NCBI RefSeq assembly: GCF_005938105.1
Contig: NZ_VCPE01000014.1
Span: 1 to 64,000, forward strand
Direction of reading: 5' to 3'
Length of the DNA: 64,000 nt
Origin: Brucella haematophila
Lineage (GTDB): Bacteria; Pseudomonadota; Alphaproteobacteria; Rhizobiales; Rhizobiaceae
Of this stretch, positions 16,087 to 42,024 are shown one piece after another (positions within the stretch are counted from its first letter, which is position 1; every line of letters starts with the position of its first letter). The translations under genes were made by a program, and so were the position numbers. The notes beneath the pieces were generated by a model. The model was not told where the DNA came from. It worked only from the letters and a program-made list of their open reading frames with translations, and made no database searches.

Positions 16087-16965
16087 TTACGGCAGACGCG
16101 CCACGACATCCGCCAGCGAAGCCTGCCAATGCGGCATGGCCCAGCCAAATGTCGTACTGAACTTCTTCGTGGAAAGGCGTGAATTGGCAGGGCGCGCCGC
16201 CTTCGTCGGATAGTCTGCGGTGGCAATATCCGTCACTTCGGCGGTCGGGCCGTCATGTTTCGCGCTTTCAGCGAAAATCCCGCGCGCAAAACCGCTCCAG
16301 TTGATGTCGCCTGTACCAACAAGATGATAGACGCCATAGCCAGCAAAATCCGGCTTTGCCGCCAGATGATCCGCCACGCGGATGACCGCTTCGGCAATAT
16401 CGAGCGCGGAAGTCGGATTGCCCCACTGGTCGGACACGACCGACAGGCCGTCGCGGGTTTCAGCAAGGCGCAGCATCGTCTTGACGAAATTCTTGCCGAA
16501 CGGGCTGTAAACCCAGGCCGTGCGCAGGATGATATGCTGCGGATGCGCCGCGGCAACCAGCCTTTCGCCTTCAAGCTTGGAACTGCCATAGATACTGCGA
16601 GGGCCGGTTGGATCAGTCTCCACATAGGGCCTATCGCTATCGCCGGCGAAAACATAATCCGTCGACAGATGAATGACCGGCGCACCGCATGCCTTCGCCG
16701 CTTCGGCGACAGCAGCAGCACCAGCCGCATTCACTGCCAAGGTGATTTCTGGCTCATCCTCGGCCTGATCCACAGCCGTATAGGCCGCAGCCGAAACGAC
16801 GACATCTGGCTTGGCATTGACGATCGCCTTGCGGATCGTTTCGGGGTCAGCCAGATCAAGTTCCGGCCTTCCCAGAGCAATCACTTCAAGATCCGGGCGC
16901 TCTGCGGCCTTTTCCAGAAGGCTCTGAACGACCTGCCCTTCCCGCCCGGTGACGACGATCTTCAT
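16087..16965 (-). CDS. rmlD: dTDP-4-dehydrorhamnose reductase RmlD
   Basis: 292 residues, a short-chain reductase. The glycine motif at the start is the variant GREGQVVQ (GxxGQxx type usual for RmlD); the catalytic segment is STDYVFAGD, and YGSSKLEGE supplies the YxxxK. It performs the last NADPH-dependent step to dTDP-L-rhamnose in the cytoplasm. Its ATG overlaps the rmlB stop by four bases. It is the last gene of the operon, followed by a terminator. Confidence 0.95.
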   Translation of the reverse strand: MKIVVTGREGQVVQSLLEKAAERPDLEVIALGRPELDLADPETIRKAIVNAKPDVVVSAAAYTAVDQAEDEPEITLAVNAAGAAAVAEAAKACGAPVIHLSTDYVFAGDSDRPYVETDPTGPRSIYGSSKLEGERLVAAAHPQHIILRTAWVYSPFGKNFVKTMLRLAETRDGLSVVSDQWGNPTSALDIAEAVIRVADHLAAKPDFAGYGVYHLVGTGDINWSGFARGIFAESAKHDGPTAEVTDIATADYPTKAARPANSRLSTKKFSTTFGWAMPHWQASLADVVARLP

Positions 16966-18053
16966 ACTGCACCCGCTTTGGCCGCACCTGCTTTGGCTTG
17001 ACCGCCGCCCAGACGCTCACCGGCATAAGTACCGCTGCGGATCGGCTCCCACCACCAGCCATTGTCGAGATACCATTGAATGGTCTTCTCAAGGCCGGTT
17101 TCGAAGGTTTCCTGTGGGGTCCATCCGAGGTCACGCTCGATCTTCGAAGCATCAATGGCGTAACGACGGTCATGCCCCGGACGATCCGTCACGAATGTAA
17201 TCAGGTCGCCGTATTTCTTGCCGTTGGCGCGCGGGCGCTTCTTGTCGAGAATGGCGCAGATCGTTTCCACGACATTGAGATTGGTGCGCTCTGAACGTCC
17301 GCCGATATTATAGCTTTCGCCGATTTTACCGGTCGTCGCGACCAAAGCCAGCGCGCGGGCGTGATCTTCGACATAAAGCCAGTCACGCACATTCGCCCCT
17401 GCCCCGTAAACGGGCAGCGGCTTTTCATCGAGCGCGTTCAGAATGACAAGCGGAATGAGCTTTTCCGGGAAATGGAATGGCCCGTAATTGTTCGAACAAT
17501 TCGAGAGAACCACCGGCAAACCATAGGTCTCGTGCCATGCGCGTACCAGATGATCAGAGGAAGCCTTGGACGCCGAATAGGGCGACGAGGGCTTATAGGG
17601 CGTTTCTTCCGTGAAAATGCCGCTGTCGAACGGCAAGTCGCCGAAAACTTCATCGGTCGAGATATGGTGGAAGCGGAAGTTAGATTTGCGCGGTTCCGGC
17701 AGTTCACGCCAATAGGCGAGCGCCGCGTTGAGCAGACGGAACGTGCCAATGATATTGGTTTCGATGAACGCCGCCGGGCCATCAATAGAACGGTCGACAT
17801 GGCTTTCAGCGGCCAGATGCATGACGATATCGACATCATTCGAACGCAGCGTATCCAGAATGAGATTGTCGTCGCAGATATCGGCCTGCAGGAAACTGTA
17901 GTTCGGGTGGTTTTCGATCTGACGCAGCGATGCGAGATTGCCCGCATAGGTCAGCTTGTCGAGATTGAGAACATTGACCTTCGGATCGGCAGCCAGATGA
18001 CGGCATACTGCCGAACCGATGAAGCCTGCACCGCCAGTGACGAGAATATTCAT
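16962..18053 (-). CDS. rmlB: dTDP-glucose 4,6-dehydratase RmlB
   Basis: 363 residues. The Rossmann motif MNILVTGGAGFIGSAVCRHL opens the protein, the catalytic STDEVFGDL is around residue 125, and the Tyr-Lys pair is in YSASKASSDHLV. It converts dTDP-glucose to dTDP-4-keto-6-deoxyglucose. ATG 18053 is chosen over upstream starts because it begins the nucleotide-binding strand exactly. It lies eight bases after rmlC and overlaps rmlD. Confidence 0.96.
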   Translation of the reverse strand: MNILVTGGAGFIGSAVCRHLAADPKVNVLNLDKLTYAGNLASLRQIENHPNYSFLQADICDDNLILDTLRSNDVDIVMHLAAESHVDRSIDGPAAFIETNIIGTFRLLNAALAYWRELPEPRKSNFRFHHISTDEVFGDLPFDSGIFTEETPYKPSSPYSASKASSDHLVRAWHETYGLPVVLSNCSNNYGPFHFPEKLIPLVILNALDEKPLPVYGAGANVRDWLYVEDHARALALVATTGKIGESYNIGGRSERTNLNVVETICAILDKKRPRANGKKYGDLITFVTDRPGHDRRYAIDASKIERDLGWTPQETFETGLEKTIQWYLDNGWWWEPIRSGTYAGERLGGGQAKAGAAKAGAV

Positions 18054-40169: not shown

Positions 40170-42024
40170 CGCTGAACAGTATCTTGCGTACCGCGTCCAC
40201 GTCGCCGCTTTCCATCGCCGCCTGAAGGCGCTGAAGGCTTTCAGGCACGTCAACAGCGGCCTTGTTTCCCTTTGGAGCGCGCATGATCTTCGGGTGTCGC
40301 GTCGATTGCGCCTGCGATGGATCGTAGAAGAGCTCTTCATACATCTTCTCGCCTTCGCGGATCCCTGTCACTTCGATGGCGATATCGCCTGCCGGATTTT
40401 CCGCATTGCGCACGGTCAGACCGGCCAGCAGGATCATATTTTCAGCCAGATCGCGAATTTTGACCGGCTCGCCCATCTCGAGCAGCACCGTATCGCCAGA
40501 TTCGGCAATCGCACCGGACTGGACGATCAGCTCTGCCGCTTCCTTGATCGACATGAAATAACGCGTCATGTCCTCATGGGTTAGCGTGATGGGGCCACCA
40601 TTGGCGATCTGCTCGCGGAAAAGTGGCACAACCGATCCATTCGATCCAAGCACATTGCCGAAACGGACCGAATAGAACGCCTTCTGCTTGCCCGCTTGTG
40701 CTGCCAGCAAGCCATAGTAATAGACAACCAGCTCGGCCCAACGCTTTGTCGCGCCCATGACATTGGTCGGACGAACGGCCTTGTCTGAGGAGATCAGCAC
40801 CATGCGTTCAACATCGGTAGCCAAAGCCGCCGCCGCCACGTCCAGCGTGCCAAAAACATTGTTGCAGATGCCAATCAGTGGGTTCTTTTCCACCAAGGGC
40901 ACATGTTTATAGGCTGCGCAGTGATAAACCGTATCGATGCGGTTATCGCTCAGCGCTTGCTCGACATAGGCACGGTCACGCACCGAACCCAGCACCGGCA
41001 CGATCTGGCAGGAAGCAAGCTGACGCAGCTGACGCTCGATCTGATAAAGCGCGAATTCGCTCGATTCAAAAAGCACGAGAGATTCAGGATTCCACTGCAC
41101 GATGGTCCGGCAAAGCTGGCTGCCGATGGAGCCGCCTGCACCCGTGACCATGATACGGCGACCTTCGACCACTTCACGCAGCAGTTCCGCGTCTGGCGGC
41201 ACCGGCGAACGACCGAGAAGGTCGTCAATCTCGATATTGCGCAGCGCCGAGACCAGATATTTGCCTGCACTTAGATCGGCAATCGGTGGTAGAATGCGCG
41301 TATTGACCGGGAGCCGCCCAAGCAGACGCGCAAAATCCTGCCGCTGCTTCTGATCGAGCGAGGGTTCAGACACCAGCACCTGCTTAACGCCGTAATTTTC
41401 GATAAGGCCGGGGATTTCTTCTGGCGCGTAAACACGCAGGCCGATGATATCCATCCCCTTGAGCTGCCCGTCTGGATCAACAAAGCCAACCACCAACGTG
41501 TCGCTGTGGCTGCGCAAAGCTGTTGCCAACTGACGTGCAGGTTCTCCAACGCCGACGATCAGCGCCGAACTGGTAAAAGTCCGGCCGGTTTCGGCATTGC
41601 GCAGCAGCCATTTCGCGCCGAAACGGCTGGCCGTGATCAGCACCGTACTCAAAAGCCAATAAAGCAGTGGTACGGAGCGCGGCAAACCGACACCGCCGTA
41701 GAGTCCCATCAGGAAAACCAGCGCTACCCAGAAGAGCGCCGCCACGGCAGTCGCCTGAAAGATCGGCCAGATCGCACGCTCTGCCAGATAGCGAATGATG
41801 GCGCGATACAGTCCGAAGCGGATGAAAACCGGAACTGCCAGAATGGGCGCAATGATGATCAGAAAAAGCTGAGCATTATTCGGTGCGAAAACAAAGCCCA
41901 GACGGATCACAAACGCCAGATAAGCGCTCAGCAAAAGCAGAACGCAATCGCTCAGCATCAATATAATTTGCTTGGTAATTCGCGGCAAAAGCGCCAGCCT
42001 TTGCCAGGGATATCTTAAACTCAT
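40156..42024 (-). CDS. wbkD: WbkD-like membrane nucleotide-sugar 4,6-dehydratase (WbpM/CapD family)
   Basis: 622 residues. Four membrane helices (residues 15-130) precede a first Rossmann-like domain (SSALIVGVGEPARQLATAL) and the catalytic SDR domain (MVTGAGGSIGSQLCRTI near 290). The active-site Tyr of ordinary SDRs is replaced by Met in TNVMGATKRWAE, as usual for WbpM-type enzymes. It converts UDP-GlcNAc to the 4-keto-6-deoxy sugar, the precursor of the quinovosamine-type primer. It is convergent with wbkF. Confidence 0.9.
   Translation of the reverse strand: MSLRYPWQRLALLPRITKQIILMLSDCVLLLLSAYLAFVIRLGFVFAPNNAQLFLIIIAPILAVPVFIRFGLYRAIIRYLAERAIWPIFQATAVAALFWVALVFLMGLYGGVGLPRSVPLLYWLLSTVLITASRFGAKWLLRNAETGRTFTSSALIVGVGEPARQLATALRSHSDTLVVGFVDPDGQLKGMDIIGLRVYAPEEIPGLIENYGVKQVLVSEPSLDQKQRQDFARLLGRLPVNTRILPPIADLSAGKYLVSALRNIEIDDLLGRSPVPPDAELLREVVEGRRIMVTGAGGSIGSQLCRTIVQWNPESLVLFESSEFALYQIERQLRQLASCQIVPVLGSVRDRAYVEQALSDNRIDTVYHCAAYKHVPLVEKNPLIGICNNVFGTLDVAAAALATDVERMVLISSDKAVRPTNVMGATKRWAELVVYYYGLLAAQAGKQKAFYSVRFGNVLGSNGSVVPLFREQIANGGPITLTHEDMTRYFMSIKEAAELIVQSGAIAESGDTVLLEMGEPVKIRDLAENMILLAGLTVRNAENPAGDIAIEVTGIREGEKMYEELFYDPSQAQSTRHPKIMRAPKGNKAAVDVPESLQRLQAAMESGDVDAVRKILFSVIAS

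What the first reader, a model, noticed from the sequence alone, without database searches (positions are those of the whole stretch)
16087..42024. A predicted rhamnan O-antigen locus with a D-arabinose supply operon
Seen: rmlACBD, two rhamnosyltransferase-like genes and a large methyltransferase-GT protein, a DPA-type operon (HAD-UbiA, DprE1-like, DprE2-like), GtrA, two polytopic GT-C-like proteins, wzm/wzt and the wbkF/wbkD pair. Known: the UbiA/DprE1/DprE2 pathway makes polyprenyl-phosphoryl-D-arabinose in mycobacteria, and the noeCHOP genes of Azorhizobium do similar work for Nod factors. Inferred: the strain builds an L-rhamnose chain exported by ABC and decorates it with D-arabinofuranose. 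No perosamine genes typical of Brucella wbk are seen here.
Basis: partly seen in the sequence, partly recalled or inferred. Interest (0 to 1): 0.8.

Follow-up and report, generated by a model that had tools for sequence, protein, structure and literature searches.

The report
Rhamnan O-antigen locus with pentofuranose-donor cassette
This stretch of a bacterial genome looks like a surface-sugar factory that builds a rhamnose chain and hangs a rare five-carbon furanose sugar on it, using the mycobacterial arabinose route plus two extra, widely conserved enzymes whose job is not explained.

Summary
The genes are there as described: RmlABCD pass curated cut-offs; exporter, rhamnosyltransferases, WbkF/WbkD and a UbiA-HAD/DprE1/DprE2/GtrA set are real, with most checked motifs conserved. 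The inference (rhamnose chain plus D-arabinofuranose side chain) is plausible but incomplete. (1) The operon has six genes: an SDR epimerase-like enzyme and a PRK07233-type FAD oxidoreductase sit between DprE2 and GtrA. In 52 of 55 well-flanked relatives (from the nearest 80) all six occur together, in several gene orders. In a 397-genome phylum sample all 8 SDR-positive genomes also have the FAD enzyme and DprE1; 51 other DprE1-positive genomes lack the pair at the thresholds used. The canonical ribose-to-arabinose route needs neither, so the final sugar may not be plain D-arabinose. (2) One of the two GT-C genes is interrupted by an in-frame stop; the other is shorter than its three closest relatives. 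(3) The general mechanism (lipid-linked pentofuranose, flippase, GT-C, side chain on an ABC-exported O-antigen) was published for Citrobacter in 2024. A same-genus genome carries the same rml/wzm/wzt chassis with a GT2/GtrA/GtrII set and no such DprE1. Verdict: new variant of a known kind; the unexplained enzyme pair is the interesting part.

The parts
16087..16965 (-). rmlD, dTDP-4-dehydrorhamnose reductase
   Evidence: TIGR01214 312 bits, cut-off 224
16962..18146 (-). rmlB, dTDP-glucose 4,6-dehydratase (true start probably near 18068)
   Evidence: TIGR01181 490 bits, cut-off 365
18062..18613 (-). rmlC, 3,5-epimerase
   Evidence: TIGR01221 228 bits, cut-off 156
18613..19494 (-). rmlA, glucose-1-phosphate thymidylyltransferase
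   Evidence: TIGR01207 481 bits, cut-off 361
19652..20572 (+). GT2 rhamnosyltransferase-like (GT2a)
   Evidence: TIGR01556 246 bits, cut-off 201
20577..21407 (+). GT2 glycosyltransferase (GT2b)
   Evidence: PF00535; 60% identical copy in same-genus genome G024
21480..24422 (+). methyltransferase + two GT2 domains; probable chain-building and capping enzyme (WsaE-like by recall)
   Evidence: PF13578 and two PF00535 stretches; relatives of at least 44% identity in 12 of 80 cassette loci
24544..25026 (-). IS200-type Y1 transposase
   Evidence: PF01797
25093..25974 (+). DDE_3/HTH_33 transposase (IS630-like by recall)
   Evidence: PF13358, PF13592
26222..27958 (-). GT-C-like glycosyltransferase candidate (GTC2); 578 aa, shorter at the C-terminus than its three closest relatives
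   Evidence: model pLDDT 87.7; weak Foldseek hits led by PglB, with AftA at rank 6; near-invariant Asp (WDQW here) and HNEH in alignment A4
28168..30282 (-). GT-C-like protein (GTC1), 704 aa, lacking TM1 and the first loop
   Evidence: homologues at 40-44% in three Rhizobium loci
30304..30501 (-). N-terminal fragment of GTC1 (about 66 residues with TM1 and the GLDASW loop), cut off by an in-frame stop
   Evidence: uninterrupted here in same-genus copy L028
30511..30924 (-). GtrA-family flippase candidate
   Evidence: PF04138
30921..32204 (-). FADox: PRK07233-type FAD oxidoreductase, phytoene-desaturase/PPO-like fold
   Evidence: NF005560 520 bits, cut-off 252; model and Foldseek
32214..33146 (-). 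SDRep: extended SDR epimerase/dehydrogenase-like protein with TGxxGxxG and YxxxK
33146..33883 (-). DprE2-like keto-reductase (TTG start)
   Evidence: NF053786 170 bits; aligned to 21gq_C over residues 3-244
33997..35331 (-). DprE1-like FAD oxidase
   Evidence: NF053785 363 bits; aligned to 4aut_A over residues 38-433
35328..36797 (-). HAD phosphatase + UbiA polyprenyl-phosphate phosphoribosyltransferase
   Evidence: PRK08238 525 bits; UbiA part aligned to 8j8j
37035..37868 (-). Wzt, ABC ATPase too short for a C-terminal carbohydrate-binding domain
   Evidence: NF050108 283 bits, cut-off 400
37780..38631 (-). Wzm, ABC permease
   Evidence: NF050109 268 bits, cut-off 380
38865..38939 (-). tRNA-Gln(ttg); same-genus DNA identity resumes here in L250, L251, L254, L256 and L028
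39162..40169 (+). WbkF-like initiating sugar-phosphate transferase
   Evidence: PF00953
40156..42024 (-). WbkD-like nucleotide-sugar dehydratase/epimerase
   Evidence: PF02719; match at E 1e-100 or better in 34 of 35 genomes of the genus, own included

Best explanation
A horizontally acquired O-antigen locus. RmlABCD make dTDP-L-rhamnose; GT2a, GT2b and the methyltransferase-GT2-GT2 protein build a rhamnose-based chain on a WbkD/WbkF primer; Wzm/Wzt export it. [quoted passage not shown] Shown here: gene content, family membership, conserved motifs, association of the SDRep+FADox pair with the DprE1 pathway, a membrane model of GTC2 with weak GT-C likeness. Inferred: chain composition, order of steps, substrate of SDRep/FADox, identity of the final sugar.
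For: Curated families; motif agreement with solved DprE1, UbiA and DprE2. Six-gene co-occurrence among the 80 nearest SDRep loci: FADox in 80 of 80, adjacent on the same strand in 78; all six genes in 52 of the 55 with at least 6.5 kb on both sides; several gene orders. Phylum sample of 397 genomes: SDRep in 8, all with FADox and DprE1; chance p about 1e-6 for SDRep within DprE1-positive and 3e-14 for SDRep within FADox-positive genomes, own genome left out and relatedness ignored. Of 13 loci without a DprE1 hit five genomes were tested; four have DprE1 elsewhere. The SDRep+FADox label needs 9 changes on the DprE1 tree, at least 5 forced by starred branches, so the link arose or broke repeatedly. 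Similarly composed rhamnan-plus-cassette loci in Rhizobium sp. SL86 and three Rhodopseudomonas. Same-genus genome G024 has the same rml/wzm/wzt chassis with a GT2/GtrA/GtrII set and no comparable DprE1, which fits a side-chain role. Mechanistic precedent: Kelly et al. 2024, PMC11127046 (abstract, Results sub-sections on OPS loci, ORF12 and ORF13, whole Discussion, passages).
Against: No chemistry. GTC1 is interrupted and GTC2 is shorter than its three closest relatives, so side-chain addition may be reduced or absent in this strain. GTC2's Foldseek matches are weak (best E 0.013, none at 0.001 or better). DprE1/DprE2 score below NCBI's equivalog cut-offs, and not every mycobacterial active-site segment is kept: WNVCVDFP of 4aut_A reads TTLALDFP here and FYHPLD reads FFYPLD. 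51 of 59 DprE1-positive genomes lack SDRep/FADox at the thresholds used, so the pair is not needed for a lipid-linked arabinose as such. One remoter FADox relative (G626, 4.7e-88) occurs without SDRep or DprE1. In one of the four positive genomes (L066's) the DprE1 copies are only 40-43% identical. In Acidobacteria (L091) SDRep/FADox sit beside a GT2-GtrA fusion and polytopic genes, so a hexose substrate is possible there.
Confidence: 0.6

Rival explanations
1. Plain D-arabinofuranose: UbiA-HAD/DprE1/DprE2/GtrA make and flip polyprenyl-phospho-D-Araf, and SDRep/FADox serve an accessory purpose (proof-reading, recycling, redox support) that leaves the transferred sugar D-Araf.
For: The canonical enzymes are present with most key motifs. 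Kelly et al. report DprE1/E2 homologues in the candidate systems of Araf-containing glycans. Devosia submarina makes an alpha-D-Araf polysaccharide (PMC8707391) and another Devosia, D. marina (L100), carries the six-gene cassette; whether D. submarina does was not tested.
Against: Two extra enzymes conserved as a unit in several phyla, SDR motifs intact, are costly for no product change; 52 of 58 sampled DprE1 loci lack them nearby.
Confidence: 0.33
2. SDRep/FADox act on the isoprenoid tail rather than on the sugar, for example oxidising or reducing the polyprenyl carrier, because FADox has the fold of phytoene desaturase and other lipid-acting flavoenzymes.
For: Foldseek top hits are phytoene desaturase 5mog, a Methanosarcina oxidoreductase and protoporphyrinogen oxidases; weak, sub-cut-off family hits to HpnE for FADox and to OleD and HpnA for SDRep.
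Against: A carrier-modifying pair should not be tied to the DprE1 pathway; in the phylum sample the pair occurs only with DprE1.
Confidence: 0.1
3. The side-chain system is a decaying relic in this strain: the backbone is made but not decorated.
For: In-frame stop in GTC1, shorter C-terminus of GTC2 than in its three closest relatives, two transposase genes next to the GT-C pair.
Against: Cassette ORFs 30511-36797 are all open and closely packed; GTC2 keeps the near-invariant loop motif, and three aligned relatives (L122, L082, L179) are also only 557-577 aa.
Confidence: 0.15

Closest known systems
Three-component pentofuranose side-chain systems of Citrobacter youngae O1/O2 (Kelly et al. 2024, PNAS, PMC11127046)
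   Same: UbiA-type polyprenyl phosphoribose synthase with a HAD (PRP) domain, SDR epimerase that sets the pentose (O2), flippase, GT-C enzyme with a beta-rich C-terminal domain, ABC-exported O-antigen.
   Different: Prototype has a MATE flippase and one SDR; here GtrA, DprE1, DprE2, an SDR and a FAD oxidoreductase together. Backbone there is Rha/Man; here only rhamnose genes are seen.
Mycobacterial DPA pathway (Rv3806c, Rv3807c, DprE1, DprE2, Rv3789, GT-C arabinosyltransferases)
   Same: UbiA, DprE1 and DprE2 homologues with most checked motifs, small flippase, GT-C transfer in the periplasm.
   Different: Phosphatase is a HAD domain fused to UbiA; SDRep and FADox are not part of the mycobacterial set as described in PMC11127046; acceptor is an O-antigen, not galactan.
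GtrABC O-antigen glucosylation (Salmonella, Shigella)
   Same: Lipid-phosphate sugar, GtrA flippase and GT-C after export; same-genus genome G024 carries a GT2/GtrA/GtrII-family set between its rml and wzt genes.
   Different: Donor is a PRPP-derived pentofuranose instead of a nucleotide-derived hexose.
Rhamnose-type wbk loci of frog Brucella isolates and BO2 (PMC5353553, PMC5040101; passages read)
   Same: rmlACBD with an exporter pair in the wbk region.
   Different: The passages I read name no UbiA or DprE genes; 'arabinose' occurs 0 times in the first paper; in the second 'arabinose' occurs once (an assimilation test) and 'UbiA' and 'GtrA' 0 times.

Membership tests
DPA (polyprenyl-phospho-arabinose) biosynthesis | UbiA phosphoribosyltransferase with NDxxDxxxD-type motif | tested here: met
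   NDIADVHADRHHWTKR against NDVRDVEADREHPTKR of 8j8j
DPA biosynthesis | 5'-phosphatase for the lipid-linked ribose phosphate | tested here: met
   N-terminal HAD domain, PF12710 28.7 bits over cut-off 27; activity not tested
DPA biosynthesis | DprE1 with its FAD-domain HGKNHH stretch and active-site Lys/Gln (roles recalled) | tested here: met
   HGKNHH, QYQ, LKTFG and AKDGR segments agree with 4aut_A; two other segments differ (WNVCVD to TTLALD, FYHPLD to FFYPLD); family score below equivalog cut-off
DPA biosynthesis | DprE2 SDR with YxxxK | tested here: met
   YGAAK against YGSTK of 21gq_C; below equivalog cut-off and second to PRK07102
DPA biosynthesis | no further sugar-modifying enzymes in the canonical set | tested here: not met
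   SDRep and FADox lie inside the operon and are conserved
DPA biosynthesis | product is D-arabinofuranose | not testable with these tools
   needs chemistry
Three-component pentofuranose side-chain system | lipid-pentose synthase + flippase + GT-C beside an ABC-exported O-antigen | tested here: inconclusive
   synthase, GtrA and exporter by family; GT-C assignment of GTC2 rests on a good membrane model but weak fold hits
GT136 | homology to C. youngae ORF12 | not tested
   ORF12 sequence not at hand; GTC2 has no Pfam or NCBIfam hit at 0.001
L-rhamnan O-antigen, ABC-dependent | complete dTDP-L-Rha genes plus Wzm/Wzt plus multidomain GT | tested here: met
   (Wzm/Wzt below the galactan-family cut-offs)
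L-rhamnan O-antigen, ABC-dependent | chain made of rhamnose only | not testable with these tools
   needs sugar analysis

The most novel reading that the evidence does not exclude
DprE1/DprE2 invert C2 and FADox/SDRep, a second flavin-oxidase/SDR pair working by the same logic, invert C3, so the six-gene cassette makes polyprenyl-phospho-D-lyxofuranose (or another new lipid-linked pentofuranose). Kelly et al. [quoted passage not shown] this cassette would be the missing double-epimerase route.
Probability: 0.13. Interest if true: 0.85.

Novelty: new variant of a known kind. Interest (0 to 1): 0.55.

Why it matters
DprE1/DprE2 are the best known lipid-linked sugar epimerases and a tuberculosis drug target. 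A widespread Gram-negative subclass that adds two conserved redox enzymes to this pathway points to an unrecognised lipid-linked sugar conversion and perhaps to a sugar not yet reported in surface glycans. It also gives a gene signature (UbiA-HAD, DprE1, DprE2, SDR, PRK07233 FAD enzyme, GtrA) by which O-antigens worth structural analysis can be picked.

Tried and rejected
GtrA as an exclusive partner of SDRep/FADox: a single-sequence BLAST suggested it, but a profile found distant GtrA-like proteins (20-38 bits) in 17 of the other 52 DprE1 loci, so I dropped that claim. SDRep/FADox as a hexose-only module, suggested by Acidobacteria loci: of 13 loci without a DprE1 hit I tested five genomes, and four carry DprE1 elsewhere, one of them only remote copies; the fifth is a 2.8 Mb MAG. 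Phage origin: an SDRep scan of viral contigs gave 19 pattern matches and no relative. Templates: phmmer with GTC2 found no PDB sequence at E up to 1. Naming the genus: no 16S match in the assembly (its control rang in 9 of 14 genomes); plasmid hits were distant, the best-covered at 78.6% identity over 20% of the query; the same-genus contig G013:C383 matches a record titled only Hyphomicrobiales bacterium (L072); genus left open. Literature: ten searches. I saw listings of 2 to 20 rows each, abstracts or passages of six further papers (PMC5353553, PMC4902059, PMC4153317, PMC10888714, PMC8707391, PMC5040101) and sections of PMC11127046; none of these described this six-gene set. Only open-licence PMC papers were searched, and the supplement of PMC11127046, whose Figs S11-S12 list further systems (the text mentions multiple epimerases or GT-Cs in Xanthomonas and Bacillus), was not readable here.

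
Full report
What is there. The window segment 16087-42024 contains, in order, rmlDBCA (minus strand), two GT2 genes and a methyltransferase-GT2-GT2 gene (plus strand), two transposase genes, two polytopic GT-C-like genes, GtrA, a FAD oxidoreductase (FADox), an extended SDR (SDRep), DprE2-like, DprE1-like, HAD-UbiA, Wzt and Wzm (all minus strand), tRNA-Gln, WbkF and WbkD. The four Rml proteins pass NCBI's curated cut-offs and GT2a passes that of the rhamnosyltransferase family. 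G+C falls to 50.1% between 19500 and 38800, against 57.9-58.0% in the flanks. WbkD is found at E 1e-100 or better in 34 of 35 genomes of the genus, own included, and same-genus DNA identity resumes at the tRNA in five compared loci (L250, L251, L254, L256, L028), so the O-antigen genes look like a replaceable insert beside a conserved flank.

The donor pathway. The enzymes of polyprenyl-phospho-arabinose synthesis match solved relatives: DprE1 to 4aut_A (residues 38-433, E 2.2e-75), the UbiA domain to 8j8j (196-473, 1.6e-21), DprE2 to 21gq_C (3-244, 1.4e-31). The HGKNHH, QYQ, LKTFG and AKDGR segments of DprE1, the NDxxDxxxD motif of UbiA and the YxxxK motif of DprE2 are in place (which residues are catalytic is recalled). 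Two DprE1 segments differ: WNVCVDFP reads TTLALDFP and FYHPLD reads FFYPLD. Both DprE-like proteins score below NCBI's equivalog cut-offs.

SDRep (TGxxGxxG and YxxxK) and FADox (PRK07233, 520 bits against a cut-off of 252, described by NCBI only as hypothetical protein) lie inside the operon between DprE2 and GtrA. FADox is in 80 of 80, adjacent on the same strand in 78. Over all 80, many with short contigs, GtrA is in 70, DprE1 in 67, DprE2 in 67, UbiA in 69, all six in 64. Of 55 loci with at least 6.5 kb on both sides, 52 hold all six; the other three lack DprE1/DprE2 (L088), DprE1/DprE2/UbiA/GtrA (L091, where a GtrA domain is fused to a GT2) or DprE1/DprE2/GtrA (L112). 43 loci read UbiA-E1-E2-SDR-FAD-GtrA, 12 read SDR-FAD-GtrA-UbiA-E1-E2, and a few have the two halves divergent. 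By record title the hosts are mostly Alphaproteobacteria, with Gamma- and Betaproteobacteria, Acidobacteria, a Chlorobium and one Streptomyces record.

Is the pair tied to the DprE1 pathway? In a 397-genome sample of the phylum (taken to be the same draw in three searches, judged by size and handles) DprE1 at E 1e-50 or better is in 59, SDRep at 1e-40 or better in 8, FADox at 1e-40 or better in 9. All 8 SDRep genomes, the window's own included, have FADox (E 4e-159 or better) and DprE1; the ninth FADox hit (G626, 4.7e-88) is a remoter relative without SDRep or DprE1. Without the own genome the chance of 7 of 7 falling in 58 of 396 is about 1e-6, and of 7 SDRep genomes falling in the 8 FADox genomes about 3e-14, ignoring relatedness. 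Around 58 DprE1 loci (own left out; some on short contigs) a BLAST count gave 36 with UbiA and DprE2 only, 9 with DprE2 but no UbiA in the stretch, 7 with UbiA but no DprE2, and 6 with the full set; a seventh genome, G620, counted among the 36, has the pair on another contig. Profiles confirmed the gap: SDRep 463-507 bits in the six against at most 75 elsewhere, FADox 587-680 against at most 32; by profile 52 of 58 loci have a DprE2-like protein, one more than by BLAST. Of 13 named loci without a DprE1 hit, five genomes were tested and four have DprE1 elsewhere, at 48-52% identity in three and 40-43% in one. On a quick DprE1 tree of 105 rows (46 labelled with the pair; named cassette loci thinned to every second one; some rows judged by locus alone; no characterised DprE1 included) the label needs 9 changes, at least 5 forced by starred branches, against about 34 for shuffled labels. 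The pair is clustered on the tree but was gained or lost several times.

What the pair may do. FADox is modelled at pLDDT 92.5; its nearest solved folds are phytoene desaturase, a Methanosarcina oxidoreductase and protoporphyrinogen oxidases, mostly flavoenzymes for lipophilic substrates. SDRep's nearest solved sequences are epimerase-domain proteins, a GalE and NDUFA9-type proteins. A flavin oxidase plus an SDR repeats the DprE1/DprE2 logic. In C. youngae O2 one SDR (ORF13) turns the ribose side chain into xylose (PMC11127046), and the authors note that lyxofuranose, which needs both centres inverted, is not found in solved structures. A second inversion at C3, giving lyxofuranose, is the boldest reading; plain D-arabinose with an accessory role for the pair remains possible. 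I could not decide between these.

Glycosyltransferases. GTC2 (26222-27958) models at pLDDT 87.7 as a helical membrane domain with a beta-rich C-terminal domain. Foldseek found nothing at E 0.001 or better; PglB holds ranks 1-3 (best E 0.013), OST-A rank 5, AftA rank 6, OST-B rank 7, with beta-glucuronidase matches of about 109 columns at ranks 4 and 8, which I take to be the C-terminal domain. Its three closest relatives (L052, L029, L048; 30-38% identity) are 708-726 aa and sit directly after GtrA in the same cassette; three aligned relatives (L122, L082, L179) are 557-577 aa. GTC1 is interrupted: about 66 N-terminal residues carrying TM1 and the first loop are separated from the remaining 704 by an in-frame stop; the same-genus copy is uninterrupted at that point, although it and its FADox are frame-split further on in a draft MAG.

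Whole-locus relatives. Rhizobium sp. SL86 (L048) and three Rhodopseudomonas (L059-L061) have the methyltransferase-GT2-GT2 gene, Wzm/Wzt, at least two rml genes and the six-gene cassette within one 21-kb locus; seven of 80 have the methyltransferase-GT2-GT2 gene and Wzm/Wzt. Same-genus genome G024 (WbkD 95% identical) keeps rml and wzm/wzt at 72-97% protein identity, carries a GT2, a GtrA and a GtrII-family gene among other genes between them, and has no DprE1 match better than 4.7e-6. The same backbone chassis with a hexose-type or a pentofuranose module is what a side-chain role predicts.

Comparison with print. The mechanism as a class is known from Kelly et al. 2024 (PMC11127046: abstract, three Results sub-sections and the whole Discussion read; supplement not read). 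Rhamnose-type wbk loci are known from frog Brucella isolates (PMC5353553, PMC5040101; passages). D-Araf polysaccharide is known from Devosia submarina (PMC8707391; abstract, passages and Discussion). Ten searches showed no title or abstract opening that describes the six-gene set; this covers only the open-licence library and the rows listed.

Verdict. Observation confirmed, interpretation partly supported. New variant of a known kind, with one unexplained and widespread enzyme pair worth following.

The odds did not need to change.

Noticed in passing
L032-L042, L184, L186-L188, L199: In many same-genus and same-family genomes a different DprE1 system occurs: HAD-UbiA plus a DprE1 about 44-49% identical to the window's, with no DprE2 hit by BLAST; in L032-L042 an rmlB-like SDR (about 23-25% identity) sits next door. 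The window genome has no such second DprE1.
   Followed up: partly
L256/L257 (same-genus genome G024): Same rml/wzm/wzt chassis but a GT2, GtrA and GtrII-family set and no comparable DprE1: an apparent side-chain module swap.
   Followed up: partly
L091, L094, L096, L102, L107 (Acidobacteria): FADox-SDRep in reversed order without UbiA/DprE hits in the stretch; in L091 beside a GT2-GtrA fusion and two polytopic genes, one with a sub-cut-off PMT_2 hit. Two of these five genomes (L091, L094) were tested and both have DprE1 elsewhere.
   Followed up: partly
window 24544-25974: An IS200-type and an IS630-like transposase gene separate the rhamnan genes from the GT-C genes; possible trace of how the modules were joined.
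   Followed up: no
window 42295-43131 and about 48425-51012: A DUF2793 protein gene just outside the O-antigen flank and a ppdK (pyruvate, phosphate dikinase) gene further on, by DNA similarity to annotated plasmid records.
   Followed up: no
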